Part shown: in pieces, positions 3,001 to 57,451 of the stretch | How the letters are laid out: every line of letters begins with the position of its first letter | How positions within the stretch are numbered: position 1 is the first letter of the stretch | Origin: Streptococcus oralis | Lineage (GTDB): Bacteria > Bacillota > Bacilli > Lactobacillales > Streptococcaceae | DNA: 64,000 bases | Direction of reading: 5' to 3' | Assembly: GCF_022749195.1 (NCBI RefSeq) | Contig: NZ_CP094226.1 | Coordinates: forward strand, 646,001-710,000 | Notes under the pieces: model-generated | What the model saw: the letters and a program-made list of their open reading frames with translations, nothing else | Database searches by the model: none | Told to the model about the DNA's origin: nothing | Translations under genes and position numbers: made by a program

Positions 3001-5037
3001 AAACCTCTTGCTGCGGTCAAACAAGCTCGCTTGCTGCAAGTAGGGCAACCACTTGAATTGCCAACGAAGGTTCCTGTTTACTTCACAGGTAAAGACGGTT
3101 ACGAAACAAAAGATTTGGCAGTAGAATGGGATGAAGTTCCAGCAGAAAATCTGACAAAAGCAGGTCAATTTACCGTTCGAGGGCATGTCCTAGGTAGTGA
3201 TCTTGTTGCTGAGTTCACTGTACGAGTGACAGACAAACTTGGTGAGGCACTCTCAGACAACCCTGACTATGATGAAAATAGCAACCAAGCCTTTGCCTCA
3301 GCAACTAATGATATTGACGACAGTTCTCATGACCGTGTTGACTATATCAATGATAGAGATCATTCTGAAAATCGTCGTTGGACAAACTGGTCTCCAACAC
3401 CATCTTCTAATCCAGAAGTATCAGCGGGTGTGATCTTCCGTGAAAATGGTAAGATTGTAGAACGGACTGTTGCTCAAGCCAAACTTCACTTCTTTGCAGA
3501 TAGTGGTACGGATGCACCATCTAAACTCGTTTTAGAACGCTATGTCGGTCCAGAGTTTGAAGTGCCAACCTACTATTCAAACTACCAAGCCTACGACGCA
3601 GACCATCCATTCAACAATCCAGAAAATTGGGAAGCTGTCCCTTATCGTGCGGATAAAGACATTGAAGCCGGTGATGAAATTAACGTTACCTTTAAAGCTG
3701 TCAAAGCCAAAGCCATGAGATGGCGTATGGAGCGCAAAGCGGATAAGAAGGGTGTTGCGATAATTGAAATGACCTTCCTTGCTCCAAGCGAATTGCCTCA
3801 AGAAAGCACTCAATCGAAGATTCTTGTAGATGGAAAAGAACTTCCTGATTTCGCTGAAAACCGTCAAGACTATCAAGTAACTTATAGCGGACAACGTCCA
3901 AAAGTCTCAGTCGAAGAAAGTAATCAAGTAGCTTCAACTGTAGTAGATAGTGGCGATGATAGCCTTCCAGTACTTGTTCGCCTCGTTTCAGAAAGTGGAA
4001 AACAAGTCAAGGAATACCGTATTCAGTTGACTAAGGAAAAACCAGTTTCTGAGAAGACTGTTGCTGCTGTACAAGAGGATCTTCCAAAACTCGAATTTGT
4101 TGAAAAAGATTTGGCCTATAAGACAGTTGAGAAAAAGGATTCAACACTGTATCTAGGTGAAACTCGTGTAGAACAAGAAGGAAAAGTTGGTAAGGAACGG
4201 ATCTTCACAGCGATTAATCCTAGTGGAAGTAATGAAGAAAAACTTCGCGAAGTGGTAGAGGCTCCGACAGACCGCATCGTCTTGGTCGGAACAAAACCAG
4301 GAACCTCTCTTCCAGAAGACGAAGTGAAGAACCTAGTCCTCGACAGACCCGAACTTATAGTCGAAGAAGAAACCATTGACTTCAAGGTTCAGGAGCGTAA
4401 GTCTGATAAGTTGTACCTAGGAGAAACTCGTGTCCTACAAGAAGGTCAAAAAGGTATTCGTCTTCACTTGATTGAAGTAGAAAATGGAAAACGTCAGCTT
4501 AAAGAAACTTACGATAAAGTCGCTGTTCAAGATCGTATAGTAGAAGTTGGTACTAAACCAGGAACTTCTCTTCCAGAAGACGAAGTTAAGAACCTAGTCC
4601 TTAACAGACCAGAACTTGTAATCGAAGAAGAAACAATTGATTTCAAGGTTCAGGAACAAAAGAATGATAAGCTTCCAGCGGGTCAAACTCGTGTTCTCCA
4701 AGAAGGTCAAAAAGGTATCCGTGTTCACTTAATCGAAGTTGAAAATGGTAAGCGAACTGAAAAAGAAAGCTATGATAAAGTTATAGCTCAGGATCGCATC
4801 GTAGAAGTCGGTACAGCTGGTGAAACGACCAAACCAGTACCTCAAGAAGCAACAAAACCACAAGTATCAGAAAAAGCAGATACAAAAGAAATTGCTTCAA
4901 GTAAAGCTAATCAAGCTCAAAAAGAGCAGTTACCAAATACAGGAAGTGCAGAAAGTCAAGCAGCCCTAGCAGCAGGCCTAGCTCTTCTTGGTTTGAGTGC
5001 AGGTCTAGTGGCCACTAAAGGAAAAAAAGAAGACTAG
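1..5037 (+). CDS. bgaA: Cell-wall-anchored beta-galactosidase, BgaA type (5' end outside window)
   Basis: This is the C-terminal ~1678 residues of a large surface exo-beta-galactosidase. The frame is open from base 1, so the GH2 catalytic part lies upstream. The visible part begins in a DUF4982-type beta-sandwich, followed by Ig-like (Big) domains. Two related modules follow, at about nt 2203-2745 and 3250-3795. Both contain an RWTNW motif and look like the CBM71 galactose/LacNAc-binding modules of pneumococcal BgaA. Three G5-like repeats follow, then a sortase signal (LPNTG), a hydrophobic stretch and a KGKKED tail. In the pneumococcus BgaA trims terminal galactose from host glycans and acts as an adhesin. 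The exact domain count is my reading. The family assignment is firm. Confidence 0.9.
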   Translation: MVDTAGIPKNDFYLYQSQWVSAKKKPMVHLLPHWNWENRELASKVEDSDGKIPVRAYSNAASVELFLNGQSLGVKKFNKKQTSDGRTYQEGANAKELYLEWKVAYQPGTLEAVARDEAGKEIARDKITTAGQPAGVRLVKEEHAIAADGKDLTYIYYEIVDSEGNVVPTANNLVRFQLHGQGQLVGVDNGEQASRERYKAQADGSWIRRAFNGKGVAIVKSTEQAGKFTLTAHSDLLKSGQVTVFTGKKEDQEKTVLGTEVPKVRTVIEKEPKMPKTVGFIYSDGSREKRPVTWSSVDVSQAGVVTVKGMADGREVEARVEILAIANELPTVKRVAPGTDLSAVDKYVSIAVTDGSVQEYEVDKWEIAEADKAKLSVAGSRIQMTGQLGGETIHATLVVEEGNPAAPAVPTVTVGGESVTGLTTQNPMQYRTLAYGASLPEVVASAENADVTVVQASAANGMRASIYVQPKDGGPLQTYAIQFLEEAPKIDHLSLQVEKADGLKEDQTVKLSVLAHYQDGTQAVLPADKVTFSTSGEGEVAVRKGMLELHKPGTVTLKAEYEGATGQVDLTIQANTEKKVAQSIRPVNVVTDLHQEPSLPATVTVEYDKGFPKTHKVIWQAIPKEKLDHYQTFEVLGKVEGLDLEARAKVSVEGVVSVEEVRVTTPIAEAPQLPESVRTYDSNGHVSSAKVTWDKIRPEQYAKEGVFTVNGRLEGTQLTTKLHVRVSAQTEKGANISDQWTGSELPLAFASDSNPTDPVSNVNDKLISFNDRPANRWTNWNRTNPEASVGVLFGDSGILSKRSVDNLSVGFHEDHGVGVPKSYVIEYYVGKTVPTAPKNPSFVGEENHAFNDPANWKEVSNLKAPAQLKAGEMNHFSFDKVETYAVRIRMVRLDSKKGTSITEVQIFAKQVAAAKQGQTRIQVDGKDLANFNPDLTDYYLESVDGKVPAVTASVSNNGLATVVPSVREGEPVRVIAKAENGDILGEYRLHFTKDKDLLSRKPLAAVKQARLLQVGQPLELPTKVPVYFTGKDGYETKDLAVEWDEVPAENLTKAGQFTVRGHVLGSDLVAEFTVRVTDKLGEALSDNPDYDENSNQAFASATNDIDDSSHDRVDYINDRDHSENRRWTNWSPTPSSNPEVSAGVIFRENGKIVERTVAQAKLHFFADSGTDAPSKLVLERYVGPEFEVPTYYSNYQAYDADHPFNNPENWEAVPYRADKDIEAGDEINVTFKAVKAKAMRWRMERKADKKGVAIIEMTFLAPSELPQESTQSKILVDGKELPDFAENRQDYQVTYSGQRPKVSVEESNQVASTVVDSGDDSLPVLVRLVSESGKQVKEYRIQLTKEKPVSEKTVAAVQEDLPKLEFVEKDLAYKTVEKKDSTLYLGETRVEQEGKVGKERIFTAINPSGSNEEKLREVVEAPTDRIVLVGTKPGTSLPEDEVKNLVLDRPELIVEEETIDFKVQERKSDKLYLGETRVLQEGQKGIRLHLIEVENGKRQLKETYDKVAVQDRIVEVGTKPGTSLPEDEVKNLVLNRPELVIEEETIDFKVQEQKNDKLPAGQTRVLQEGQKGIRVHLIEVENGKRTEKESYDKVIAQDRIVEVGTAGETTKPVPQEATKPQVSEKADTKEIASSKANQAQKEQLPNTGSAESQAALAAGLALLGLSAGLVATKGKKED
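4108..4824 (+). repeat. Three tandem G5-like domains in the BgaA stalk
   Basis: Three in-frame units share a core of the type GETRVLQEG-KG and end in DRIVEVGT. They start near nt 4108, 4369 and 4633. The second and third are nearly identical in protein sequence, with the linker TKPGTSLPEDEVKNLVL repeated. The first is more diverged. G5 domains are common in the stalks of Gram-positive surface proteins. Confidence 0.8.
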
Positions 5038-17397: not shown

Positions 17398-20300
17398 ATG
17401 GGAAAAGAATTATTTAATCCACACCTTCGTAAGTTTTCTATTCGGAAACTAAACGTGGGTGTTTGCTCTGTGCTCTTGTCTACCTTGGTTCTATTGGGAG
17501 TGACGTCTCAGGTTAGCGCTGATGAAACAAGTGCTTCTGGTGTCCAAAATGAGATTTCGCGAACGGATATTGCTGAACCATCAGCAACTTCTACAGCACC
17601 AACAAATTCTGAAGCTTCTGTAGTTGCTTCAGCTACTGAAGCTCCTCAATCCGCTGAAAATAGTCAACCTGCAAACTCAGCTTCAGAATCTATTGACAAA
17701 CCAAAGAATGAACAGCCAGTTGTTTCTGAAACACCTCAACCTTCTGTTGAGAAGCCGGTTGCTTCTACAGAAATGAAGCCTGCAGAGAGTGCCAATTCAG
17801 CTTCAACTGAAGCTAGCTCAGAAGCTGTAAGTGCTTCAAGAGCTACAGAACAACCAGTAGCGACTAGGGAGGCTACGCAACCTACACGTTCTCGCCGAGC
17901 ACGTCGAGATGCTACACCTACTGGTTTACGTGATGGAGATCCTAACAACACAATTGAAAAACCAACTTTAGCAGATTCCGAAAAGAAACGCCCTGCGGAT
18001 CTAGTTAAGCAAATTAACTGGTTAGATTTTGGTGATAGTCAGGCATTTAAAGGACTTGATACTGACGGTTCTCTTAAAGTAGGTAGTGTTTATGAGAAGG
18101 AAATTTCTCCAGGATATGTCGTTAAATTAACAGTTACGGAACTAAAACCTTTCCACTCAACTGAGATTTATCGTGCTCGTGTAGCAGGAACATCTTATGA
18201 AAACAGTTATGATCCTGATGCTAAAAATACCTGGTTTAGATATGTACCTGCAGACTATAATCGCCAAGTTAATGAGGGTGATTCTGCACGACCAAAAATC
18301 ATTGGGGCTCCTATGAACCAATGGACATCTCTTCGTGAGCAGGGAATTGATACTAATGGTCGGAAGACACAGTTACAAGTACCTAAAAATGGTGCAAGCT
18401 ATGGTGTGAAGTTTAAGGTTGAAGCAACATATCTAAACAAGCCTGTTAAGGCCACAGTGGTTATGGCGGATGGAGAAGAAGCAAACCCAGGTGAATATGC
18501 TATCTTTACGACCAATGGTAAAGGATGGGAACATTTAGCTGAATGGAAACGTGTGTCACCACAAGGTAAAGTGATTACAGATACCTACGCACCAATGAAT
18601 CCTAATCGACTTGGTCAGTATATTGGTGACAATGCAACGACTCCAACGATTGACTGGACAAAATTTACAAATCCTGATCAAAGAACAGGTGGCTTAGGCT
18701 CACAAGTATTTGGTCCAAACACTTCTAAAGACCATACTGTGCCAATTGTGATGACTCGTGAAGCATCAGAAGTTGGAATTTATATTGCATCTTCTGGTCA
18801 GCAAGCTGCTATGATTGGTTTCATGGTTGTAGATACTGGAGATGCTCCTGAAAGTTATGGAAATGCAGTTCATACTATTTCTGGTTACAATGCTGCTACG
18901 GGAGCACAAAATCCACAACCTTACCTTGGTCGAAAACCTGCTGATATTGATACTACGTCAGGTAATGATTGGACCCATGATGATAGTACAGATCATGCTG
19001 ATGAAGGGATTGATCAGCTTTTACCATCAGACTTAGTTGGTAAGACTCATGAGTTATTCCAAGCAGATCGTCTTCGTGATGGTGATTATTCGCTTCGTTT
19101 CCATGCTTCAGCTAATGGAAATGAAAAAGCTTATGTTCGAGCTTGGATTGATTTCAATAATAACGGTAAATTTGATGAAAATGAAGCTAGTGATTTTACA
19201 GAAGTAACAAATGAAGGCGACTATACCGTTACTTTTAGAAATCACCCACCTATGAACGATGATAACGTTAAGAAGCTAGGAATGCGTGTTCGTATTGCCT
19301 TAAACCAAGGTGATATCGAAAAACCAACTGGCACAGCTTTTAGTGGTGAAGTTGAAGACTTACAAGTTAACCTTACTTATCCACCAAAAGGTGAGAAGAA
19401 GGAAACAAAGGGCTTACGCGATCAACAACAACAAACAAGCTTACGCTTCACACCTCGTGGTTATTCTAAAGAAGACGAGAATGCTAGAACAACGATTGAT
19501 ACTAATAAGGCGCCTGTCGTTTTAGATAATAATGGACGTGAATTAACAGCAGATGCAGAAGGTTGGTATACAACCGCAGAAGGACGTTACAAGGTGACGC
19601 CAAATGGTGACAATGTTGATGTTGTCTTCGTTCCAAATGCTGGATACGTAGGTACTACATCAGGTATTAACATCCGTCGCTTTGACAACAATGGAGCAAG
19701 CACAGAATGGACTGCAAAAAATAATTCAGAGCCTATTGTCAACCAACCTCTAAATTCTATGGATGCTCGTTATGTTCCTACTGTAGTTGATTTTACTGAA
19801 CATCGTTCAACTGATGCTCAAGGTTTACCGCAAGTAAAAGATATTTTATTTACTGATGGGAATCCAGCTAACACACCGGTTCAACCATCTGCAAGTAATC
19901 CTGCTACTTTCTTGGATGGAAACGGAGAACCTATCTCAGGAACTAGTATTCCTGCAACATCAGGTGGTAAAGAAGTTGGTACCTTTAACCTAGATCCAAC
20001 TACGGGTCGAGTAACCTTTACCCCAAATAAATCATTTGTTGGAACTGTTGATCCGATTAAATTAAAAGTAAATGATGCAAGTGGTAATGATCACTTTGCC
20101 ACTTATCAACCAACTGTTACCCGAGTTGTTCCAACATCCCAAAACGCAAGTTCTGAAGGTATTCAAGGTGCAGAGCAATCTGGGAACTTGGTCTTCACTC
20201 CAGGTGATAACCGTATTCCAATTGATGAATCAATTGCACCAACTTTTGACAACGGTCAGCCAACGAAAGAGGTTCCTGGCGTTGGAACTTATAAGGTGGA

Positions 20301-23300
20301 CAGTACAGGTCGCGTTACTTTCCAACCAGTTCCTGGCTACTCTGGACGTCCAACTGCAGAAACTGTTAAGCGTGTAGATAAGAACGGAACAGAAGTAACA
20401 GCTACCTATCAAGCGGATGTTAAGGCTGCAACTCCAACAGGGCAAGGAGCAGAGACTACTGGACTCCAGGGTCAAAAACAAGATAGCCACCTTACCTTTA
20501 CTCCTGGTCAAGCAACTATCAATGGACAAAATGAGACTGTACCATTTGCACCAGAAGGTCCACAGTTTGTGGTTGATGGACAAGTTCAACAAGGTAACAG
20601 CTTACCAGTACATGATGCTAGCGGTAAACTTCAAGGAACTTATACTGTTCAACCAAATGGGGATATTAGCTTCCAACCAGCACCTGATTTCTATGGAACG
20701 CCAACTCCTGCAACTCTTCGTGTGACAGATAAGAATGGTTCTACTGCTGAAGCAGTTTATCAACCTACGGTGACTAAAGTCACTCCAACAAGTACAAATG
20801 ATACATCAACTGGTCTGCAAGGACAGCCACAAAGCGGTAAGCCAACCTTTACAGCAGGCGATCCAGCAGTTCCACTAGATGATACGAAACCAATGACTTT
20901 CGAAGATGGTCAGTCAACGAAGACCGTTCCGGGTGTAGGTGAATACAGCATCAATTCTGATGGTTCTATCACCTTTACTCCAGAAAAACAATACGTTGGA
21001 ACTCCAGCTCCAGTAACAGTGAAACGTGTAGATAAGAACGGTACAGAAGTTACTGCGACTTATACTCCAACAGTGACTAAGGTAACCCCAACTTCAACAG
21101 ACGCCACTTCAAATGGTATCCAAGGTCAACCGCAAAAAGGTACCCCAACCTTCACAGAAGGTAATCCATTGGTTCCACTTGATGATACAAAACCAGTGAC
21201 ATTCGAAGATGGTCAATCAACGAAAACAGTTCCGGGTGTAGGTGAATACAGCATCAATCCAGATGGATCTATTACCTTTACACCAGACAAACAATATGTT
21301 GGTACACCAACTCCAGTCACAGTGAAACGTGTAGATAAGAACGGTACAGAGGTTACTGCGACTTATACACCAACAGTGACTAAGGTCACTCCTACAGGAA
21401 CTGGCGCAACCAGCACAGGTCCTCAGGGTGTTCCACAAACCGGGACTCCAACGTTTGCTGGTGGTGATCCACTGGTTCCAATTGATGAAACAGTCGAGCC
21501 AACCTTCGAAGATGGAAGCAAAGAGAAATCTATTCCAGGCCAAGGAACTTACACGATTACACCAGATGGTACAGTGACCTTCACACCAGACAAACAGTTT
21601 GTTGGAAACCCAGATCCAGTCACAGTCAAACGAGTAGATAAGAATGGCACCCCAGTTACTGCGACTTACAGCCCAGAGTTTACGAAAGTGACACCAACTG
21701 GAACAGGTGATAAGACAGAGGGTCTGCAAGGTCAGGTCCAAGAAGGTAAAGTGACCTTCACTCCAGGCCATGACTCAGTTCCATTTCCAGCTGATTCAAC
21801 TCCACTATTTGACAATGGTACAACTGTGAAAGAAGTGCCAAATGTCGGTAAGTTCGAAGTGGACGCAGATGGCAAGGTGACCTTCACTCCAGACAAACAG
21901 TTCAAGGGTGAAACACCAGAGCTTGAATTGACTCGTGTGGATGCCAATGGAACTCCTGTTACTGTCAAGTACCAAGCGGTGGTGAAAGAAGTAGTTCCAA
22001 CTTCAACGAATGCCACTTCAAATGGTATCCAAGGTCAACCGCAAAAAGGTACCCCAACCTTCACAGAAGGTAATCCATTGGTTCCACTTGATGATACAAA
22101 ACCAGTGACATTCGAAGATGGTCAATCAACGAAAACAGTTCCGGGTGTAGGTGAATACAGCATCAATCCAGATGGCTCTATTACCTTTACACCAGAAAAA
22201 CAATACGTTGGCACACCAGATCCAGTCACAGTCAAACGAGTAGATAAGAATGGAACAGAAGTCACTGCGACTTATACCCCAACAGTGACTAAGGTAACCC
22301 CAACTAGCACTAACGCAACGAGCACAGGTCCTCAGGGTGTTCCACAAACTGGCACTCCAACCTTCCAAGGTGGCGATCCATTGGTTCCAATCGATGAAAC
22401 AGTAGAGCCAACCTTCGAAGATGGAAGCAAAGAGAAGTCTATTCCAGGTCAAGGAACTTACACGATTACACCAGACGGTACAGTGACCTTCACACCAGAC
22501 AAACAGTTTGTCGGAAACCCAGATCCAGTCACAGTCAAACGAGTAGATAAGAATGGCACCCCAGTTACTGCGACTTACAGCCCAGAGTTTACGAAAGTGA
22601 CACCAACTGGAACAGGTGATAAGACAGAGGGTCTGCAAGGTCAGGTCCAAGAAGGTAAAGTGACCTTCACTCCAGGCCATGACTCAGTTCCATTCCCAGC
22701 TAATTCAACTCCACTATTTGACAATGGTACAACTGTGAAAGAAGTACCCAATGTTGGTAAGTTCGAAGTGGACGCAGACGGTAAGGTGACCTTCACTCCT
22801 GATAAACAGTTCAAGGGTGAAACACCAGAACTTGAATTGACTCGTGTGGATGCCAACGGAACTCCTGTTACTGTCAAGTACCAAGCGGTGGTGAAAGAAG
22901 TAGTTCCAACCAGCACTAACGCAACGAGCACAGGTCCTCAAGGTGTCCCTCAAACAGGCACCCCAACTTTCCAAGGTGGTGATCCACTGGTTCCAATCGA
23001 TGAAACAGTAGAGCCAACCTTCGAAGATGGAAGCAAAGAGAAATCTATTCCAGGTCAAGGAACTTACACGATTGCGCCAGATGGTACAGTGACCTTCACA
23101 CCAGATAAGCAGTTTGTTGGAAACCCAGATCCAGTTACAGTCAAACGTGTAGATAAGAACGGCACCCCAGTCACTGCGACTTACAGTCCAGAGTTTACTA
23201 AGGTGATTCCAACTGGTAAAGATACTTCTTCAGTGAACATTAAGGGGCTTGTTCAAACGGGTACGCCAACATTTGAAGGTGGTAATCCGCTTGTTCCAAT

Positions 23301-24249
23301 CGATGAAACCGTGGCAGCAACATTTGAAGATGGATCAACTGAAAAAGTGATTCCAGGTGAAGGAACTTACGCAATCTCACCAGATGGCACCGTTACCTTC
23401 ACTCCAGAAGCTAATTTTGTAGGAAAAGGAACTGGCGTAACAATCGTTCGTAAGGATAAGAACGGTACCCCAGTTACTGCAAGCTATCGTCCAACAGTTG
23501 TAGATCCATCTACTGGTCATGATACGGCTTCTACAGGAGCAAAAGGCCAACCACAAGTAGCAACCCCAACGTTTGAAGGACATATCGATTCGACTGTACC
23601 ACCAACCTTTGAGGATGGTAGCACGACTATGGTTGTTCCGGGTGAAGGAAGCTATACAATTGATAAAGATGGTAAGATTACCTTTACACCAGAACCAGAC
23701 TTTGTTGGTACAGCTAAAGGATTGGTTGTGAAACGTCTGGATATGTATGGAAATGTAGTTATTGCTCATTACACACCAACTGTCCTTGGACAAACACAAG
23801 TGAGTGATGCGACATCCGAAGGTCTTAAAGGTCAAACTCAGACTGGTAAACCAAACTTTACAGGTGATGTCGATCTGACAGTTCCGCCAACCTTTGAAGA
23901 TGGAACAACTGAAAAAGTCGTTCCAGGTGAAGGAACTTATGTAATCTCACCAGATGGCACCGTCACCTTTACCCCTGAGGCAGACTTTGTAGGACAAGCC
24001 AAAGGTGTGAAAGTGATCCGTAAAGACCGTAATGGAAATATCATTTCAGGATTCTATACTCCAACAGTAGTAGAACTTCCTGTAGTTGAAAATCCAGAAC
24101 AACAAGGTATTACAGAAGAAAGAACTACTAAAACTCTTCCAAATACGGGTTCTGAGGAGACATCTCACTTGACAGCTGGTCTATTGGCTGCTTTATCAGG
24201 TATGGGATTAATTTCTCTAGCTCAAAGAAAAAAATCTGAGGAAGAATAA
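17398..24249 (+). CDS. CshA-type giant fibrillar LPXTG adhesin
   Basis: A 2283-residue wall-anchored protein with a YSIRK-type signal (FSIRKLNVGVCSVLLSTLVLLG) cut near SADE. An Ala/Ser/Thr/Pro-rich region with an RRARRD stretch follows to about residue 180. Next is a ~470-residue non-repetitive domain with a Ca-binding-like DFNNNGKFDENE and a GEVED signature. About 15 CshA-type fibril repeats of ~101 residues follow (TPTST...G-QG-PQ-GTPTF, TFEDG, GEY-I-PDG-ITFTP, VKRVDKNGTEVTATY). It ends in LPNTG, a hydrophobic stretch and RKKSEEE. In S. gordonii CshA forms peritrichous fibrils that bind fibronectin and partner bacteria. Repeats 6-8 and 9-11 are near-identical at DNA level. A TATAAT lies about 35 bp upstream, and AGGAG is the RBS. 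Confidence 0.9.
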   Translation: MGKELFNPHLRKFSIRKLNVGVCSVLLSTLVLLGVTSQVSADETSASGVQNEISRTDIAEPSATSTAPTNSEASVVASATEAPQSAENSQPANSASESIDKPKNEQPVVSETPQPSVEKPVASTEMKPAESANSASTEASSEAVSASRATEQPVATREATQPTRSRRARRDATPTGLRDGDPNNTIEKPTLADSEKKRPADLVKQINWLDFGDSQAFKGLDTDGSLKVGSVYEKEISPGYVVKLTVTELKPFHSTEIYRARVAGTSYENSYDPDAKNTWFRYVPADYNRQVNEGDSARPKIIGAPMNQWTSLREQGIDTNGRKTQLQVPKNGASYGVKFKVEATYLNKPVKATVVMADGEEANPGEYAIFTTNGKGWEHLAEWKRVSPQGKVITDTYAPMNPNRLGQYIGDNATTPTIDWTKFTNPDQRTGGLGSQVFGPNTSKDHTVPIVMTREASEVGIYIASSGQQAAMIGFMVVDTGDAPESYGNAVHTISGYNAATGAQNPQPYLGRKPADIDTTSGNDWTHDDSTDHADEGIDQLLPSDLVGKTHELFQADRLRDGDYSLRFHASANGNEKAYVRAWIDFNNNGKFDENEASDFTEVTNEGDYTVTFRNHPPMNDDNVKKLGMRVRIALNQGDIEKPTGTAFSGEVEDLQVNLTYPPKGEKKETKGLRDQQQQTSLRFTPRGYSKEDENARTTIDTNKAPVVLDNNGRELTADAEGWYTTAEGRYKVTPNGDNVDVVFVPNAGYVGTTSGINIRRFDNNGASTEWTAKNNSEPIVNQPLNSMDARYVPTVVDFTEHRSTDAQGLPQVKDILFTDGNPANTPVQPSASNPATFLDGNGEPISGTSIPATSGGKEVGTFNLDPTTGRVTFTPNKSFVGTVDPIKLKVNDASGNDHFATYQPTVTRVVPTSQNASSEGIQGAEQSGNLVFTPGDNRIPIDESIAPTFDNGQPTKEVPGVGTYKVDSTGRVTFQPVPGYSGRPTAETVKRVDKNGTEVTATYQADVKAATPTGQGAETTGLQGQKQDSHLTFTPGQATINGQNETVPFAPEGPQFVVDGQVQQGNSLPVHDASGKLQGTYTVQPNGDISFQPAPDFYGTPTPATLRVTDKNGSTAEAVYQPTVTKVTPTSTNDTSTGLQGQPQSGKPTFTAGDPAVPLDDTKPMTFEDGQSTKTVPGVGEYSINSDGSITFTPEKQYVGTPAPVTVKRVDKNGTEVTATYTPTVTKVTPTSTDATSNGIQGQPQKGTPTFTEGNPLVPLDDTKPVTFEDGQSTKTVPGVGEYSINPDGSITFTPDKQYVGTPTPVTVKRVDKNGTEVTATYTPTVTKVTPTGTGATSTGPQGVPQTGTPTFAGGDPLVPIDETVEPTFEDGSKEKSIPGQGTYTITPDGTVTFTPDKQFVGNPDPVTVKRVDKNGTPVTATYSPEFTKVTPTGTGDKTEGLQGQVQEGKVTFTPGHDSVPFPADSTPLFDNGTTVKEVPNVGKFEVDADGKVTFTPDKQFKGETPELELTRVDANGTPVTVKYQAVVKEVVPTSTNATSNGIQGQPQKGTPTFTEGNPLVPLDDTKPVTFEDGQSTKTVPGVGEYSINPDGSITFTPEKQYVGTPDPVTVKRVDKNGTEVTATYTPTVTKVTPTSTNATSTGPQGVPQTGTPTFQGGDPLVPIDETVEPTFEDGSKEKSIPGQGTYTITPDGTVTFTPDKQFVGNPDPVTVKRVDKNGTPVTATYSPEFTKVTPTGTGDKTEGLQGQVQEGKVTFTPGHDSVPFPANSTPLFDNGTTVKEVPNVGKFEVDADGKVTFTPDKQFKGETPELELTRVDANGTPVTVKYQAVVKEVVPTSTNATSTGPQGVPQTGTPTFQGGDPLVPIDETVEPTFEDGSKEKSIPGQGTYTIAPDGTVTFTPDKQFVGNPDPVTVKRVDKNGTPVTATYSPEFTKVIPTGKDTSSVNIKGLVQTGTPTFEGGNPLVPIDETVAATFEDGSTEKVIPGEGTYAISPDGTVTFTPEANFVGKGTGVTIVRKDKNGTPVTASYRPTVVDPSTGHDTASTGAKGQPQVATPTFEGHIDSTVPPTFEDGSTTMVVPGEGSYTIDKDGKITFTPEPDFVGTAKGLVVKRLDMYGNVVIAHYTPTVLGQTQVSDATSEGLKGQTQTGKPNFTGDVDLTVPPTFEDGTTEKVVPGEGTYVISPDGTVTFTPEADFVGQAKGVKVIRKDRNGNIISGFYTPTVVELPVVENPEQQGITEERTTKTLPNTGSEETSHLTAGLLAALSGMGLISLAQRKKSEEE
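19409..24087 (+). repeat. Array of about 15 CshA-type repeats (~303 bp period)
   Basis: In-frame units of mostly 101 codons. The first two and the last two or three are diverged, the central ones very similar. Typical unit landmarks are the TPT/VPTST opening, the PTFEDG centre and the VKRVDKNG-VTATY close. Confidence 0.85.
21085..22902 (+). repeat. 909-bp higher-order tandem duplication (3 CshA units x 2)
   Basis: Units 6-7-8 (21085-21993) and 9-10-11 (21994-22902) are the same three-unit block repeated head to tail with only scattered differences. Unit 12, from 22903, starts a third partial copy and resembles units 7 and 10. Minus-strand open frames in this region recur with exactly the same 909-bp spacing, confirming the period. 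Confidence 0.85.
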
Positions 24250-50109: not shown

Positions 50110-52728
50110 ATGAAACAACTATCTAGTGCTCAAGTTCGCCAAATGTGGCTTGATTTCTGGGCAAATAAAGGCCACTCTGTCGAACCATCAGTCAGCTTGG
50201 TTCCTGTAAATGACCCAACTCTTTTGTGGATTAACTCTGGGGTAGCAACCCTTAAGAAATACTTTGACGGAACCATTATCCCTGAAAATCCACGTATTAC
50301 CAATGCGCAAAAAGCTATCCGTACTAACGATATTGAAAACGTAGGGAAGACTGCGCGCCACCATACTATGTTTGAAATGTTGGGGAACTTCTCTATTGGT
50401 GATTATTTCCGTGATGAAGCCATCACTTGGGCTTATGAGCTCTTGACAAGCCCAGAATGGTTTGATTTCCCAGCTGAAAAACTTTATATGACCTACTATC
50501 CAGACGATAAGGATTCTTATAACCGCTGGATTGAAGTAGGAGTGGACCCAAGCCACTTGATCCCAATCGAAGACAACTTCTGGGAAATCGGTGCTGGACC
50601 TTCTGGACCAGATACAGAAATCTTCTTTGACCGTGGAGAAGCCTTTGACCCAGAAAATATTGGAATTCGTCTCCTTGCAGAAGATATCGAAAACGATCGT
50701 TACATCGAAATCTGGAACATCGTTTTGTCACAATTCAACGCTGATCCAGCTGTTCCTCGTAGCGAGTACAAGGAATTACCGCATAAGAACATTGATACGG
50801 GCGCTGGTTTGGAGCGTTTGGTGGCAGTCATCCAAGGGGCTAAGACAAACTTTGAAACGGACCTCTTCATGCCAATCATTCGTGAAGTTGAGAAATTGTC
50901 TGGTAAGGTTTATGACCAAGATGGCGACAACATGAGCTTTAAGGTCATTGCTGACCATATCCGTTCTCTTTCATTTGCCATCGGTGATGGTGCCCTTCCT
51001 GGAAATGAAGGTCGTGGTTATGTTCTTCGTCGTTTGCTCCGTCGTGCTTCTATGCACGGTCAAAAATTGGGTATCAACGAGCCTTTCCTTTACAAACTGG
51101 TTCCAACGGTTGGAAAAATCATGGAAAGCTACTACCCAGAAGTGCTTGAAAAACGTGACTTTATCGAGAAAATCGTGAAGAGCGAGGAAGAGTCATTTGC
51201 CCGTACTCTTCACTCAGGTCAACACTTTGCAGAAACCATTGTAGCTGATTTGAAAGCGAAAGGCCAAAACGTTATTGCGGGGCAAGATGTCTTCAAACTC
51301 TACGATACATACGGATTCCCAGTTGAATTGACAGAAGAAATCGCTGAAGAAGCTGGGATGACTGTCGACCGTGAAGGTTTTGAAGCAGCCATGAAAGAGC
51401 AGCAAGAACGTGCGCGTGCGTCAGCTGTCAAAGGTGGCTCAATGGGAATGCAAAATGAAACCCTTCAAAACATTACAGTGGAAAGTGTCTTCAACTACAA
51501 CGCCAGCCAATTGCCTTCTAAGTTGGTGGCTATCGTAGCGGACAATGCTGAAGTAGAAGCTGTATCTGAAGGAACTGCCTCTCTTATCTTTGCAGAGACT
51601 CCATTCTACGCTGAAATGGGTGGACAAGTAGCTGACCACGGTCAAATCTTGGATGAGTCAGGTAAGGTCGTGGCTACTGTGACAAATGTTCAAAAAGCTC
51701 CAAACGGACAAGCTCTTCATACAGTTGAAGTCCTTGCACCGCTTGCCTTGGACCAAGAATATACCTTGGCAATTGATACCAATCGTCGTCACCGTGTTAT
51801 GAAAAACCACACTGCGACTCACTTGCTTCACGCTGCCCTTCACAATATCCTTGGTAGCCACGCAACTCAAGCAGGTTCACTTAATGAAGTCGAATTCCTT
51901 CGCTTTGACTTTACCCACTTCCAAGCAGTTACTGCTGAAGAATTGCGTGCCATTGAACAGCAAGTCAATGAGAAAATCTGGGAAGCTTTGGCTGTTGAAA
52001 CAGTTGAAACAGATATCGACACTGCTAAGGAAATGGGAGCGATGGCTCTCTTTGGTGAGAAATATGGCAAGGAAGTTCGCGTTGTAACCATCGGTGACTA
52101 CTCTGTGGAACTCTGTGGTGGTACCCACGTTGGCAATACTTCTGAAATCGGTCTCTTCAAGATTGTCAAAGAAGAAGGAATCGGATCAGGAACTCGCCGT
52201 ATCTTGGCAGTTACTGGTAAGGAAGCCTTTGAAGCTTACCGTGAACAAGAAGACGCTTTGAAAGCTGTCGCAGCAACCTTGAAAGCACCTCAACTCAAGG
52301 AAGTTCCTCATAAGGTAGAAGGACTCCAAGAGCAACTCCGTCAATTGCAAAAAGAAAATGCAGAGTTGAAAGAAAAAGCAGCAGCCGCAGCGGCAGGTGA
52401 TGTTTTCAAGGACGTGAAGGAAGTTAACGGCCACCGTTACATTGCAAGCCAAGTTTCTGTTTCAGATGCGGGTGCCCTTCGTACTTTTGCGGACAACTGG
52501 AAACAAAAAGACTACTCTGATGTCCTTGTTCTTGTCGCAGCTATTGGTGACAAGGTCAACCTTCTCGTAGCCAGCAAGACTAAAGAAATCCACGCAGGTA
52601 ACTTGGTTAAAGAATTGGCTCCAATCGTCGATGGACGTGGTGGTGGTAAACCAGACATGGCTATGGCAGGAGGAAGCAACCAAGCGAAGATTCAAGACTT
52701 GTTGGATGCAGTAGCAGGTAAATTGTAA
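50110..52728 (+). CDS. alaS: Alanyl-tRNA synthetase
   Basis: An 872-residue class II synthetase charging tRNA-Ala. In order: a catalytic core with [38 protein letters not shown] and the DTGAGLERL region; a tRNA-recognition domain; an editing domain with [11 protein letters not shown] and CGGTHVGNT (zinc ligands His, His, Cys, His); and a C-terminal DHHA1 domain with [15 protein letters not shown]. The length is normal. Transcription is governed by the upstream T-box. The last ~310 coding bases are duplicated about 3.18 kb downstream beyond a defence-type insert. Confidence 0.97.
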
Positions 52729-52768
52729 GAAAACATTTAGGATCTATCCACTTGGGTGGATCTTTGTT
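52421..52768 (+). repeat. Upstream copy of a direct repeat: intact alaS 3' end plus terminator
   Basis: Direct repeat shared with 55605-55952 at a constant offset of 3184 bp with no indels in the coding part. I count about 29 differences in 308 bp (about 90% identity), mostly silent. The repeat includes the stop codon and the terminator hairpin. Confidence 0.9.
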
Positions 52769-52770
52769 TT
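52740..52770 (+). terminator. alaS terminator
   Basis: Stem GATCTATCC / GGGTGGATC (with G-T pairs) and a short loop, followed by TTTGTTTT. Confidence 0.75.
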
Positions 52771-53378
52771 CCAAAGGAAATTTTGTAAAATTCTTTGTCA
52801 ATCATTTTAAATTGATGAAAAGATATGATATATAGTTAGATTGTAATTCATGTATTTGATTTTCAGTATAAGGAAAGCACATCATAAAAATTATAAAGAG
52901 TTCCTAAAACTAAATTAAATCATAAAATCAACAGATTGATAGATCATACAAATTACCAATTCTAGAAAATTAATAGAATTAGTAATGATGTTAATTTGTT
53001 TTTATCATTTGATTTAAAGTTGAAGATTTTGCAATTTTATCTATTACTGGGATTAGTAAATATAATTTCTCTTCTAATTTGAAAAAACAGAAAAAGGATG
53101 TTATAATGAAATCGGTTTCTTAAGTAATAATATATTTCTAAAATATATTAGAGAAAAGGTTATAGTGTTACTTTTAGAATGAAGGACGCAGTATTGTGTA
53201 TAGAACATATTATGGTAACAATATAAAATAGCAAAGGTACTTGGACTTTTAGTTAGATTCAGGACTTTATAAATAAAGAATTTAATTATATGATTGCTTA
53301 CGAAATATTAAAAATTACTTAAGGTTGATAGGCAACTTTATCCATCTATTGTTAAAAATTAAAAGGAGTTTGAATATT
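52771..53378 (+). other. AT-rich leader of the defence insert, no recognised gene
   Basis: About 600 bp of extremely AT-rich sequence starting right after the alaS terminator. It has only tiny frames: a four-codon one after AAAAGGATG at about 53106, and a 15-codon ATG frame at about 53180. No integrase, tRNA or clear promoter was seen. The base composition differs sharply from alaS and matches the two following genes, so it belongs to the insert. Confidence 0.6.
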
Positions 53379-54638
53379 ATGAAGATCCAATTCAAAGGAT
53401 TATTTGGTCGATTTGACTACAGTATAGAATTAAAAGAAGATGGACTAACCATTATTACGGGCCCAAATGGATTTGGAAAATCAACTATATTAGATTGTAT
53501 ATATCAATTGTATGAAAAAGAAGAAGGTATTCCTTATTTTTTCAATTTAGATTTCGAAGAAGCAATTTTTTTAATATCTAATGAAAAACAATTAAAAATT
53601 ACAAAAAAAGCTGAATCTTTAGTAATAAATGATAAAACAAATTACTCTATTAATTTAAAAGATATTAAAAAATATATAGAAAATGCCTCTCTTTTTAATA
53701 GATATTATAATAAAAAGTTTGATAAAAAATTCTCAGATATAAAAAATATGGATGAAGTTTTTAATTATGAGTCATTTATAGAACTATATTCTAGGAAGGG
53801 TTTAATTAAAAAGAATAATATTAAGTTTGTGAAAAATACTCTGAAAGAGTTTTCTAAAGAACTAGGGAAGGTATTTTACATAAGAGAGCAAAGATTGGTG
53901 AGTGAAGAATTTGATAGTTTTGATGAATCTAGATTAAAAGATGAGATAAAAGAATTACCTAGAAAATTCAAACTTCTTTTGGATGAGAATAGTTCAGAAT
54001 ATTCCTCAAAGTCAAATGAACTAGATAGTTCATACCCTATACGATTATTTAATAATAAAGAAGCAATCACTTCACAAGATGAATTCAATCAGAAAATACA
54101 ATTGATGACTGAAAAATTTCAAAAATTAAATAAGTATGATCTTTCTCGCATTCAGGACTTGAGTAATTTAGAGTTTAAAGAAGAATTTGCAAAAGCATTA
54201 AAAATATATTTTGACGATTTTGATGAAAAATATCAAATTTATGAGAATTTTATTAATCAATTAGAATTATTTACCGAGATAATAAACGATAAATTGAATT
54301 TCAAAGATATTGCAATTTCAAGAGAAAAGGGCATTTTTATTAAGGATACTGATTTTACAGGGAAACAGATTTCCCTATCTCAGCTGTCATCCGGTGAAAA
54401 ACAGGAAATTATTCTATTTTATAAATTAATTTTCGAGACTCCAGAAAATACTTTATTATTAATTGATGAACCTGAGATATCCTTACATATTGCTTGGCAG
54501 AAGAAATTTATGGATGATTTATATAAGATAATTAAATTCAAAAAGCTGAATGTAATAGTTGCTACACACTCTCCACAAATTATTAATAATCATTGGGAGA
54601 ATCAAATTGATTTAGGAGAGTTATATGGACTCGATTAG
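53379..54638 (+). CDS. ABC-type AAA ATPase, AriA-like (PARIS defence system)
   Basis: A 419-residue ATPase of the AAA_15/AAA_21, OLD/SMC-like group. Walker A is ITGPNGFGKSTIL near residue 30. A long charged helical middle follows (residues ~90-320, likely coiled coil). The ABC signature is LSQLSSGEKQEIILFYKL, Walker B TLLLIDEPEISLHIAWQ, and the switch His is in VIVATHSPQI. The start at 53379 has AAAAGGAG about 10 nt upstream. The 14-bp overlap with a DUF4435 gene is the layout of PARIS, where AriA senses phage anti-restriction proteins and holds AriB. Codon usage is far more AT-rich than neighbours. Assignment to PARIS rather than a related ATPase-TOPRIM pair is inference. Confidence 0.78.
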   Translation: MKIQFKGLFGRFDYSIELKEDGLTIITGPNGFGKSTILDCIYQLYEKEEGIPYFFNLDFEEAIFLISNEKQLKITKKAESLVINDKTNYSINLKDIKKYIENASLFNRYYNKKFDKKFSDIKNMDEVFNYESFIELYSRKGLIKKNNIKFVKNTLKEFSKELGKVFYIREQRLVSEEFDSFDESRLKDEIKELPRKFKLLLDENSSEYSSKSNELDSSYPIRLFNNKEAITSQDEFNQKIQLMTEKFQKLNKYDLSRIQDLSNLEFKEEFAKALKIYFDDFDEKYQIYENFINQLELFTEIINDKLNFKDIAISREKGIFIKDTDFTGKQISLSQLSSGEKQEIILFYKLIFETPENTLLLIDEPEISLHIAWQKKFMDDLYKIIKFKKLNVIVATHSPQIINNHWENQIDLGELYGLD

Positions 54639-55449
54639 AAGAAATCTCAAACGAGAGGATATAATTTCTGAAATTAGACTTTTATGTGGTGAAGACTATA
54701 ATAAAGTAAAGACTTTTGTCATAGTAGAGGGAGACGACGATTTAAGATTTATTAAAAATAAATTTAATGATAATACATATGGATTCGAATCGTTTTCAGG
54801 ATGTGATGGTGTTGAAGAAATTGTTAATTTTTTTCAGAGTGATAAAAGAATTATTGGGATACGGGATAAAGACTATAGCAGTTTGACTTCAGGTGACAAT
54901 AAAATTTTTTTGTATGATTATCATAGTTTAGAAATTATGTTAGCTATGAATGATGAATCATTTGAAAGTATATGTAGTGAATTTTATTGTGGAGATGAGA
55001 AAGTCTTTGATTTACGTAAGAAAGTATTTCAAAAGCTAAAATATATAAGTTGTTTTAGAGAAAAAAATTCATCTGAGGGTTGGGAATTCATTACCGAAAA
55101 TATTTCTATTGACGAACTGTATAGAAAATCAGAATTAAACTGTAATGAAGAAATTATAAAAGAAATAAATAGACCGTCAAAAAATAATTACGATTCAGAG
55201 AAACAGTCTATTGTTGAGGAACACTATCATTTTGTTACAGATTTAAAATTAATTACAAGAGGACACGATTTTTCTGAATTATTTAAAGTGATTTGTAACA
55301 CTTCTGGAATTGAAAAAAATATTAAAAGTAAAGATGTTGAGTTAGTACTGAGAGCTAGTTTCACTTTAGAGTCATTTAAAAGAACTAATCTTTTTAAGAG
55401 TCTTTCAGAATATGAAAAATCATATGGGCTTAACTTTTTAGTTAGTTAA
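54625..55449 (+). CDS. DUF4435 TOPRIM-like nuclease, AriB-like (PARIS defence system)
   Basis: A 274-residue protein with a TOPRIM-like core: FVIVEGDDDLRF (acidic residue Glu35) and IIGIRDKDY (Asp81-x-Asp83), then a Leu/Glu motif in YDYHSLEIML. This is the DUF4435 pattern. In PARIS, AriB is the effector released from AriA on infection; it is reported to cleave host tRNA and stop growth. It overlaps the ATPase gene by 14 bp, so translation is coupled. It is as AT-rich as its partner. No nuclease activity can be shown from sequence. Confidence 0.75.
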   Translation: MDSIRRNLKREDIISEIRLLCGEDYNKVKTFVIVEGDDDLRFIKNKFNDNTYGFESFSGCDGVEEIVNFFQSDKRIIGIRDKDYSSLTSGDNKIFLYDYHSLEIMLAMNDESFESICSEFYCGDEKVFDLRKKVFQKLKYISCFREKNSSEGWEFITENISIDELYRKSELNCNEEIIKEINRPSKNNYDSEKQSIVEEHYHFVTDLKLITRGHDFSELFKVICNTSGIEKNIKSKDVELVLRASFTLESFKRTNLFKSLSEYEKSYGLNFLVS

Positions 55450-55604
55450 AACTTATATTTATTAAGATAAGTTGTAGATTTAAATTGATAATTAATTTAA
55501 TAAAAAATTGTTTAATTAGTAGCTAGAAAAAAAGATTATTCTATTTTTTCACTTTAATAATGGTATTTTACGAATTTTTAATGTTTAATTTTAATTAGTT
55601 CAAG
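55450..55604 (+). other. AT-rich right end of the defence insert
   Basis: 155 bp of AT-rich sequence between the DUF4435 stop and the resumed alaS-like sequence. No terminator hairpin, gene or inverted repeat of an insertion sequence was recognised. The junction with alaS-like sequence is sharp at about 55600-55605. Confidence 0.5.
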
Positions 55605-55912
55605 AAGTCAGCGGTCACCGTTACATTGCAAGCCAAGTTTCTGTATCAGATGCAGGTGCCCTTCGTACCTTTGCGGATAACTGGAAACAAAAAGACTACT
55701 CTGATGTGCTTGTTCTTGTCGCAGCTATCGGTGACAAGGTGAACGTTCTTGTAGCTAGCAAGACAAAAGATGTGCATGCAGGAAACCTTGTCAAAGAATT
55801 GGCTCCAATCGTCGATGGACGTGGTGGTGGTAAACCAGACATGGCCATGGCAGGAGGAAGCAACCAAGCGAAAATCCAAGAACTCTTGGAGGCAGTAGCA
55901 GGTAAATTGTAA
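55605..55912 (+). pseudogene. Duplicated alaS 3' fragment
   Basis: About 101 codons identical in frame to the alaS C-terminal end (from [16 protein letters not shown] to AVAGKL and the stop), with only about six amino-acid differences from the intact gene. It lacks everything upstream, and no start codon or RBS gives a sensible product. It is followed by its own copy of the alaS terminator. It marks the right boundary of the AAA/DUF4435 insert and is probably the original or donor alaS end left by the recombination that brought the insert in. Confidence 0.88.
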
Positions 55913-55923
55913 GAAAACATTCA

Positions 55924-55951
55924 GGATCTATCCACTTGGGTAGGTCTTTTT
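55924..55951 (+). terminator. Second copy of the alaS terminator
   Basis: Same hairpin as at 52740, here with GGTAGGTC in the right arm and a better T run. Confidence 0.7.
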
Positions 55952-56002: not shown

Positions 56003-57451
56003 TTATTTTGTTGCCCAGACACTGACTGAACCTGCTGCTACTGGAAATTCTCCATAACCTTCCTCATCAATTGTAACTTGACCTTGGTGGTTTCCAAGTA
56101 AATCTACAAAGGTTTGGTTAGCCCATTCTTGCCCGACAAACATAGACTTGCTGTTTTCTTGGTCATTTGAGATAAGAACAGCGATTGGGGATTGATTTTC
56201 AGCGCCTGAACGTACCCATCCGATACAGTTGGCATCGTCAAAGTAGTCTGTTTGCTCTCCATAGGCCCTGTCTTTTCGGATGGCTAGGAGACGATCAAGA
56301 ACTTCTCTGAAATCTTGTTGAGCAAATTGCCCTGAAATGCCGTAATAGTCTCCGTAAAAGACACATGGAAGGCCATTTTGGCGTAATAGAATAAGGGCAT
56401 AGGCTACTGGCTTGAACCATTCTTGGACGGTTGATTCGAGTGCCTGTCCTCTTTGAGTATCGTGGTTATCAACGAAAGTGACAGCCTTGTCGGGCTTGAG
56501 TTCAACCAAGCTATCTGTGAAAATGCCACGAAGATCATAGCTTGCTCCAGCCCGACTGGCTTCAAAGAGATTTTGGTGGAGGCGAACATCGACAAGGTCA
56601 AAACGTTCTTCTATTTTCTCGAGATAGTCTAGATTGGCATCCTTGTCTGGGTTCCAAAATTCCCCAAAAACATAGAAATCTTGACCGTATTTTTCCTTCA
56701 TATCACGGATGAAATTGCCCATAAAGAAGGAGTCGATGTGCTTAACGGCATCCAAACGGAAACCAGCTACACCAGTCGTTTCCATGAACCAGTCAGCCCA
56801 GTCATAGATGTTTTGGATGACTTCAGGATGCTTAAAGTCTAGGTCGGCATACATGAGGTAGTCGTAGTTACCGTTTTCGTTATCGACCAATTCCTCGTTG
56901 GCCCAACCTTTATTGTCTCCTTGGATCAGGTAAATACCAGACTTACGGCGTTTGGCATCGTAGTCTGTACCTGTGAAGTGGTACCAGTGCCAGTGGAAGT
57001 CATTGTAGGTATCTTGGCGACCATCGAAGGTGAAGTGAGTCCAGCCATTGATAGTAAAGGGCTCGCTTAGTTGAAGGGTACGATCCTCAGGGTCCACTTC
57101 AATAACCTGAAAGGCTTCCATGTGATCGGCAGCAGCCTTGTGATTGAGCACCACATCGGCCATAGGTTGAATTCCCTGTGCCTTTAGAGTTTGAATGGCT
57201 TGAAGATAGTCTTCTTTAAACCCATACTTGGTACGGACAGTCCCTTTTTGGTGAAATTCGCCTAGGTCAAAAAGATCGTAAACACCATAGCCGACATCTT
57301 TTTCATTGGTTGCCTTGAAGGCAGGTGGCATCCAGACATGGCTGATGCCCAGGTTTGCTAAGTGCTCTGCATCATTTGTCAGTCGCGTCCAGTGTTGGCC
57401 GTCGTGAGGCAAATACCATTCAAAGTATTGCATAAGTGTCTGATTTTGCAT
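56003..57451 (-). CDS. Cytoplasmic alpha-amylase (GH13)
   Basis: A 482-residue GH13 alpha-amylase without signal peptide, so intracellular, probably acting on imported maltodextrins or stored glycogen-like polymer. The catalytic motifs are visible: MADVVLNHKA, GFRLDAVKHID with the nucleophile Asp, FGEFW with the acid/base Glu, and TFVDNHDTQ with the third Asp. The N-terminus MQNQTLMQYFEWYLP is typical of the amyS/AmyA cytoplasmic subfamily. The RBS is AGAGGA. A LacI-type palindrome overlaps its promoter. Confidence 0.94.
   Translation of the reverse strand: MQNQTLMQYFEWYLPHDGQHWTRLTNDAEHLANLGISHVWMPPAFKATNEKDVGYGVYDLFDLGEFHQKGTVRTKYGFKEDYLQAIQTLKAQGIQPMADVVLNHKAAADHMEAFQVIEVDPEDRTLQLSEPFTINGWTHFTFDGRQDTYNDFHWHWYHFTGTDYDAKRRKSGIYLIQGDNKGWANEELVDNENGNYDYLMYADLDFKHPEVIQNIYDWADWFMETTGVAGFRLDAVKHIDSFFMGNFIRDMKEKYGQDFYVFGEFWNPDKDANLDYLEKIEERFDLVDVRLHQNLFEASRAGASYDLRGIFTDSLVELKPDKAVTFVDNHDTQRGQALESTVQEWFKPVAYALILLRQNGLPCVFYGDYYGISGQFAQQDFREVLDRLLAIRKDRAYGEQTDYFDDANCIGWVRSGAENQSPIAVLISNDQENSKSMFVGQEWANQTFVDLLGNHQGQVTIDEEGYGEFPVAAGSVSVWATK

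What the first reader, a model, noticed from the sequence alone, without database searches (positions are those of the whole stretch)
52771..55604. PARIS-like two-gene defence cassette inserted directly behind alaS
An ABC-type AAA ATPase (Walker A GPNGFGKST, signature LSSGEKQ, Walker B LLLIDEPEIS, long charged middle) overlaps by 14 bp a DUF4435 protein with a TOPRIM-like E...DxD pattern. That is the layout of PARIS (AriA-AriB), in which AriA senses phage anti-restriction proteins such as Ocr and AriB is a toxic nuclease acting on tRNA. The cassette is far more AT-rich than its surroundings and lies between core genes that are normally adjacent (alaS and amy). Presence in a Mitis-group streptococcus at a tRNA-synthetase locus suggests an undescribed defence integration site. 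Streptococcal variants of this system may recognise a different trigger.
Basis: partly seen in the sequence, partly recalled or inferred. Interest (0 to 1): 0.87.

Follow-up and report, generated by a model that had tools for sequence, protein, structure and literature searches.

The report
PARIS-type immune cassette behind alaS
A mouth streptococcus carries a two-gene anti-phage system of the PARIS type that probably arrived by ordinary DNA recombination together with a foreign copy of the end of a neighbouring essential gene, and a few related streptococci have other immune-like genes inserted at the same place between two copies of that gene end.

Summary

The last 309 nt of alaS, with the terminator, are repeated beyond the cassette (55604-55912, 90% identical). 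Beside amy lies the native copy; the copy that now ends alaS is from another lineage. Of 284 genomes of the genus, 4 have a second alaS end, with three cargos: PARIS, an ATPase plus possible nuclease, and CRISPR Cas2 debris (two genomes). In G119, against its sister G113, the insert lies in a tract with sharp edges in alaS and amy; there copy 2 came in with the tract. No integrase was found. I conclude that these cassettes spread by homologous recombination, probably natural transformation. The first insertion step, phage trigger and tRNA target are inferred or untested.

The parts
50110..52728 (+). alaS, full length but mosaic: 5' part native-like, last ~1.15 kb unlike the oralis-type genomes
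   Evidence: Sliding identity (last 1.68 kb) against 29 loci: best of 7 oralis-type loci 0.95-0.99 until about -1200 nt, then 0.88-0.95; same trend, less sharp, with other genomes
52420..52764 (+). Copy 1 of the alaS 3' end (309 nt) with its terminator; the copy from another lineage, used by the intact gene
   Evidence: 90.6% identical to copy 2 over 309 nt; mean 0.894 to 26 oralis-type loci against 0.935 for copy 2
52765..53378 (.). AT-rich non-coding leader; first 45 nt match the alaS-amy spacer of G237 (96%)
   Evidence: No ORF of 60 aa or more apart from the TTG-started extension of ariA, no Rfam match at E up to 1
53079..53107 (+). Possible promoter TTGAAA-17-TATAAT with TG before the -10
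   Evidence: Consensus scan, 11 of 12 matches; 26 such sites found in the region against 20.9 (sd 4.0) expected, so weak
53379..54638 (+). AriA-like ABC ATPase, 419 aa
54625..55449 (+). AriB-like TOPRIM protein, 274 aa; E35, D81, D83 invariant in the 20 aligned sequences
55604..55948 (+). Copy 2 of the alaS 3' end (105-codon open frame without the gene's 5' part) with terminator; the displaced native copy next to amy
   Evidence: 97.7% identical to the closest oralis-type alaS ends; FastTree places it with them, support low to moderate
56003..57451 (-). amy (alpha-amylase), right neighbour
   Evidence: amy lies about 94 nt behind alaS in empty oralis-type loci

Best explanation
The two genes are a divergent PARIS-type anti-phage system. 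By analogy with E. coli PARIS, the AriA-like ATPase would assemble as a sensor that holds the AriB-like TOPRIM nuclease inactive; a phage protein would release AriB, which would cut host tRNA and stop phage growth. The system reached this place without an integrase: a donor fragment carrying a foreign alaS 3' end followed by the cassette recombined homologously into the resident alaS, and the far end joined inside the resident alaS end, leaving that native end displaced behind the cassette. Once made, such an arrangement spreads by ordinary two-sided homologous recombination in the flanking core genes, most likely during natural transformation. Shown here: folds, gene pairing, repeat structure, which copy is native in the window, G144 and G234, and the recombination tract in G119. 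Inferred: the one-sided first insertion, transformation as the route, the phage trigger, tRNA cleavage, and immunity itself.
For: Fold of both proteins; AriA profile and sequence matches; AriB profile in 8 of 20 aligned members; AriA-like gene immediately upstream of AriB in 9 of 9 fetched relatives (L157-L165; matches in L162-L164 are weak, in L163 partial) and in a Salmonella plasmid locus. Duplicated alaS end, also in 3 other genomes with two other cargos. Copy beside the downstream neighbour is native-like and copy ending alaS is not, in the window, G144 and G234. In G119 against sister G113: identical at alaS nt 2005-2576, divergent from 2577 through cassette, copy 2 and on to about 980 nt after the start of copy 2, then 626 nt without mismatch. 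Repeat lengths differ between cases: 346 nt with terminator (window), 179 (G119), 434 (G144, G234). comEC lies in an intact 748-aa frame in this genome. Oliveira et al. 2017 (PMC5635113, passages read) report gene-transfer hotspots without integrases and more hotspots in transformable species.
Against: The window's AriB matches no Pfam, PADLOC or NCBIfam family by itself, and a profile of its relatives found no AriB chain in the PDB by sequence; its matches were SYG-1 chains (E 0.02, probably chance) and RNase M5 (E 0.25). Only 1 of 284 genomes of the genus, the window's own, has this AriB, so no second insertion of the same cassette could be compared and the donor is unknown. Copy 1 of the window is also 93.9% identical to one empty oralis-type locus (L005, G093) and pairs with it in the tree (support 0.53), so 'foreign' means from another lineage, not from a named donor. 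G119 does not show the same pattern: its copy 1 is sister-like except for the last 43 nt and its copy 2 is not; I read this as later transfer of a ready-made arrangement. Repeats of this kind would also result from single-crossover integration of a circle. Tree support for the 309-nt copies is mostly low to moderate. Control genes: queA ends 1 of 284 and aroC ends 1 of 284 genomes with two matches, against 4 of 284 for alaS, so the excess is small in number.
Confidence: 0.72

Rival explanations
1. Remnant of an integrase-borne island: a tyrosine recombinase once inserted an element at an att site in the alaS 3' end, the element carried a replacement gene end, and the integrase was later lost.
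For: A replaced gene end with the displaced native end downstream is the classic footprint of such elements (established knowledge), and it is seen here.
Against: No integrase-like gene seen between the repeats: in the window two genes and one 70-aa antisense frame, in L034 two genes and two short frames, in L032/L033 only short frames and a 108-aa ORF (not every short frame was scanned). Repeats are hundreds of nt and differ in length (179, 346, 434 nt). In G119 the imported tract ends inside amy.
Confidence: 0.12
2. Single-crossover (Campbell) integration of a circular molecule carrying an alaS 3' end plus cassette.
For: It gives flanking direct repeats of exactly this layout.
Against: The downstream copy should begin with donor sequence; the window's copy 2 is native-like from its first 100-nt block (0.98 to L042 and L056). 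The cassette's AriB has only 24-27% matches in the plasmid and phage collections, and every alaS-end match there is under 60% identical, so no Streptococcus-like alaS end was found on such molecules.
Confidence: 0.15
3. The pair belongs to another ATPase-nuclease family (Septu, OLD/Gabija or a retron-type ATPase) and not to the PARIS kind.
For: PtuA profiles follow closely behind AriA in PADLOC (1.7e-22 against 1.2e-26); the AriB-like protein has no direct family match.
Against: Fold margins are large (24.6 against 16.9; 14.8 against 7.2); Septu effectors are HNH and OLD/Gabija have the TOPRIM fused (established knowledge).
Confidence: 0.07

Closest known systems
PARIS (AriA-AriB), E. coli B185; structures 8ux9, 8v45-8v49
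   Same: Two-gene order ATPase then TOPRIM/DUF4435 protein, overlapping or adjacent; both folds; Walker motifs and TOPRIM acidic pattern.
   Different: 19-24% identity for AriA and 11-12% for AriB in the structural alignments; AriB 274 aa instead of about 305; not caught by the published DUF4435 rule; trigger unknown.
Integrase-free hotspots fed by homologous recombination in flanking core genes (Oliveira et al. 2017, PMC5635113, passages read)
   Same: Variable cargo between core genes, no integrase found, recombination in the flanks, genus with transformable members.
   Different: Here a duplicated end of the flanking gene marks the insertions and lets native and imported sequence be told apart.
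Homology-facilitated illegitimate recombination in pneumococcus (Prudhomme et al. 2002: recalled, and seen only in the reference list of PMC3784515; the paper itself is not held)
   Different: Laboratory observation there; here a natural footprint, and the far junction can only be inferred.

Membership tests
PARIS | AriA-type ABC ATPase (Walker A, signature, Walker B) | tested here: met
PARIS | AriB-type TOPRIM/DUF4435 partner | tested here: met
PARIS | Published detection rule: DUF4435 profile at 27 bits or more in this very protein (an operational cut-off, not a biological trait) | tested here: not met
   No Pfam family at E up to 1 for the window's protein. Rule read in PMC9122126 (passages)
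PARIS | Genes paired as an operon across relatives | tested here: met
   9 of 9 fetched relatives (three of them with weak or partial matches) plus one Salmonella plasmid locus
PARIS | Catalytic TOPRIM acidic residues (E26 in E. coli AriB) | tested here: inconclusive
   E35, D81, D83 invariant in 20 aligned sequences; E26A mutant inactive, read in PMC12409363 (passages); residue-by-residue mapping to E. coli AriB not made
PARIS | Activation by a phage anti-restriction protein (Ocr or the like) | not testable with these tools
   Needs infection or co-expression
PARIS | tRNA cleavage by released AriB; AriA hexamer holding AriB | not testable with these tools
   Needs biochemistry; no complex was predicted
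Septu / OLD / Gabija | PtuA with HNH PtuB, or TOPRIM fused to the ATPase | tested here: not met
   Partner is a separate protein with TOPRIM fold; it matches no HNH family
Integrase-borne genomic island | Integrase gene in the element | tested here: not met
   Between the repeats only the two genes and one 70-aa antisense frame of 60 aa or more; neither gene matches an integrase family. A lost integrase is not excluded

The most novel reading that the evidence does not exclude
The alaS 3' end is a docking site at which transformable streptococci exchange defence cassettes with homologous recombination alone: cassettes travel with a donor alaS end that keeps the essential gene intact, and the leftover direct repeat lets RecA remove the cassette again, so that immunity is gained and lost reversibly without any integrase.
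Probability: 0.3. Interest if true: 0.7.

Novelty: new variant of a known kind. Interest (0 to 1): 0.5.

Why it matters
It adds a PARIS-type system in streptococci that the published detection rule would miss. It also gives a readable footprint (foreign gene end, cargo, displaced native end) for how immune genes enter genomes without an integrase. That footprint can be counted in large sets of streptococcal genomes, which makes the proposed link between transformation and integrase-free hotspots directly testable.

Tried and rejected
Site-specific integration and vectors: AriB in plasmids and phages gave only 24-27% matches (1 plasmid record, 2 records of one phage) and one viral contig relative at 36%; alaS ends in those collections were all under 60% identical and the one viral contig at 39%. 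RNA families in the region: none at E up to 1. The cassette as DNA elsewhere in the genus: 51 of 284 genomes have a match, but apart from the window all listed ones are short (up to 135 nt); the best is 45 nt in the alaS-amy spacer of G237. Second alaS ends outside the genus: 1 of 324 genomes of other genera in the order sample (G491, 89% complete, 4% contamination), not examined further. queA control: G099 alone has two matches; the second is not within about 13 kb downstream or 1 kb upstream of queA and was not located. aroC control: G275 alone has two matches, a draft with 4% contamination and a weak best match; its two places were not read. A search for E. coli DNA like the Salmonella gene pair, meant for residue mapping, found nothing. 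An expressed role for the alaS fragment in copy 2 was considered and not tested; the longest frame there with a start codon has 68 aa. Microhomology at the right junction could not be judged without the donor. An earlier count gave about 360 nt for the G144 repeat; one search shows 434 nt, and an earlier self-comparison was cut at 320 nt by its query.

The survey of what follows alaS covers 135 loci from 134 genomes, not all 284: match lists were cut off, four genomes whose contig ends just behind alaS and the most distant listed ones were not fetched, and four loci hold no downstream ORF. The self-comparison for duplicated ends covered 132 loci and found three besides the window.

Full report
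What is there. The window is part of a one-contig 1.88-Mb genome. The record is unnamed; that it is a Streptococcus of the oralis kind is inferred from named relatives of its proteins, and 'the genus' below means the tool's own grouping. alaS ends at 52728 with a terminator. An AT-rich block follows with two genes: a 419-aa ABC-type ATPase (53379-54638, ATG behind AAAAGGAG) and a 274-aa protein (54625-55449) that overlaps it by 14 bp. GC is 22-28% in the block and 42-47% over alaS and amy. The cassette is therefore flanked by direct repeats of the alaS end.

How rare it is. The AriB-like protein was found in 1 of 284 genomes of the genus, the window's own. In the large protein collection 43 proteins passed the cut-off; the window's own protein is recorded in 54 contigs, and one 92% relative is named S. 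oralis. Close relatives therefore exist in public data, but their contexts could not be read here.

The site. The last 102 codons of alaS were searched in 284 genomes of the genus: all 284 match, and 4 (G000 = the window, G119, G144, G234) match twice. In an order-wide sample of 395 genomes, 1 of the 324 from other genera (G491, 4% contaminated) also matches twice. For two control genes of the window the same search gave two matches in 1 of 284 genomes each (queA: G099; aroC: G275); in G099 the second place is not beside queA. The alaS excess is thus clear in kind but small in number. The other three cases carry different cargo. G119 has an ATPase of 461 aa (PADLOC best PDC-M56A 4e-14 and HEC-02A 4.2e-14, GajA models next) and a 226-aa partner with a weak PD-T4-4_B match (0.005) and an ELK motif that recalls PD-(D/E)XK nucleases (motif recalled, from no call). 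G144 and G234 share a decayed stretch with a Cas2 piece (PF09827, 1.3e-6, above its cut-off) and a 108-aa ORF. Two further genomes (G094, G139) have a 423-aa protein with an HNH match (PF01844, 1.3e-4, first 400 aa scanned) between alaS and amy without a duplicated end. Among 135 loci (134 genomes) amy is the first ORF behind alaS in 60. Repeat lengths are 346 nt (window, terminator included), 179 nt (G119) and 434 nt (G144, G234).

Which copy is foreign. Over 309 nt, the window's copy 2 is up to 97.7% identical to alaS ends of empty oralis-type loci (mean 0.935 over 26 chosen loci), whereas copy 1, the end of the working gene, reaches 0.942 with a locus of another lineage (mean 0.894 over the same 26; one of them, L005, is at 0.939). 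In G144 and G234, copy 2 is 0.98-0.99 identical to some nrdF-type relatives, while copy 1, apart from the two copies to each other (0.968), is closest to other loci such as L010 and L009 (0.95-0.96). A FastTree of the ends agrees, with mostly low to moderate support on these short sequences. Along the last 1.68 kb of the window's alaS, the best oralis-type identity is 0.95-0.99 until about 1.2 kb before the stop and 0.88-0.95 after it; a second set of genomes shows the same trend less sharply. So in the window the intact gene is native in front and from another lineage behind, and the native end lies displaced beyond the cassette. G119 is different: its copy 1 groups with sister G113 (only the last 43 nt differ) and its copy 2 does not.

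A clean case of transfer. G119 and G113 share alaS without mismatch from nt 259 to 1548 and from 2005 to 2576. From 2577 on G119 differs, then carries the cassette and copy 2, and differs until about 980 nt from the start of copy 2; 626 nt without mismatch follow. A separate divergent patch lies at 1549-2004, and beyond the 626 nt the two genomes differ again in patches. I read this as a homologous recombination tract that brought in the cassette with copy 2 already in place.

How it most likely came about. A donor fragment with its own alaS end and the cassette paired with the resident alaS; the other end joined inside the resident alaS end. Such one-sided-homology insertion is known from pneumococcus (PMC3784515, passages read, which cites the original work; the original is not held). 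Later transfers can use homology on both sides, as in G119. An intact comEC frame (748 aa) fits a transformable host. PF02384 methylase matches lie in three frames, so a restriction system that PARIS might back up is possible but was not examined. Oliveira et al. 2017 (PMC5635113, passages read) describe hotspots without integrases, with more recombination in flanking core genes and more hotspots in transformable species. The present case is a variant with a footprint that can tell native from imported sequence. A Campbell insertion of a circle is not excluded, but the window's copy 2 is native-like from its first 100-nt block.

What is not in print. Searches of the held open-access library for alaS islands in Streptococcus, defence hotspots in S. 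mitis, transformation and defence in pneumococcus, DUF4435 with Streptococcus (0 papers), alanyl-tRNA synthetase with insertion or partial duplication, and S. oralis anti-phage defence (3 papers) showed no account of this site in the listings. Of the papers in those listings I looked into passages of PMC3784515 and PMC5635113 only. Subscription papers are mostly not held.

Verdict. Function, trigger and target remain untested. Interest 0.5: a new PARIS-type branch is an ordinary extension, while the alaS-end footprint with three cargos is the part worth following.

Noticed in passing
L034 (G119) 1563-3625: Another two-gene cassette behind alaS: 461-aa ATPase (PDC-M56A/HEC-02A-like) and 226-aa partner with an ELK motif and weak PD-T4-4_B match, followed by about 179 nt of a second alaS end; the partner's stop lies at the junction, so it may be truncated.
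   Followed up: partly
L032 and L033 (G144, G234), 1290-2930 of L032: Decayed cargo between two alaS ends: a Cas2 piece (PF09827), other short frames and a 108-aa ORF.
   Followed up: partly
L061 and L064 (G094, G139), 74-1345 nt behind alaS: A 423-aa protein with hydrophobic N-terminal stretches and an HNH match sits between alaS and amy without a duplicated alaS end.
   Followed up: partly
L095 (G237), 0-330 nt behind alaS: The first 45 nt of the window's cassette leader recur here (96%), followed by a RUP-like repeat (name recalled) and a second copy of the alaS terminator: possibly the scar of a lost insertion.
   Followed up: partly
L018, L037, L038 and L053, just behind the alaS stop: These loci carry a RUP-like repeat (name recalled) between the alaS stop codon and its terminator.
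   Followed up: no
L077, L082, L085, L133: A 218-aa membrane protein resembling CPBP-type proteases (recalled) lies between alaS and nrdF in 4 loci.
   Followed up: no
window 52765-53378: About 610 nt without a gene precede ariA, with one promoter-like site at 53079-53107 (11 of 12); a long 5' leader or a decayed gene.
   Followed up: partly
G099, queA C-terminus: A second match to the queA end exists somewhere in this one-contig genome, not beside queA.
   Followed up: partly
window 17398-24249: A 2283-aa surface-protein-like ORF ending in an LPNTGSEE anchor motif, built of many near-identical repeats.
   Followed up: no
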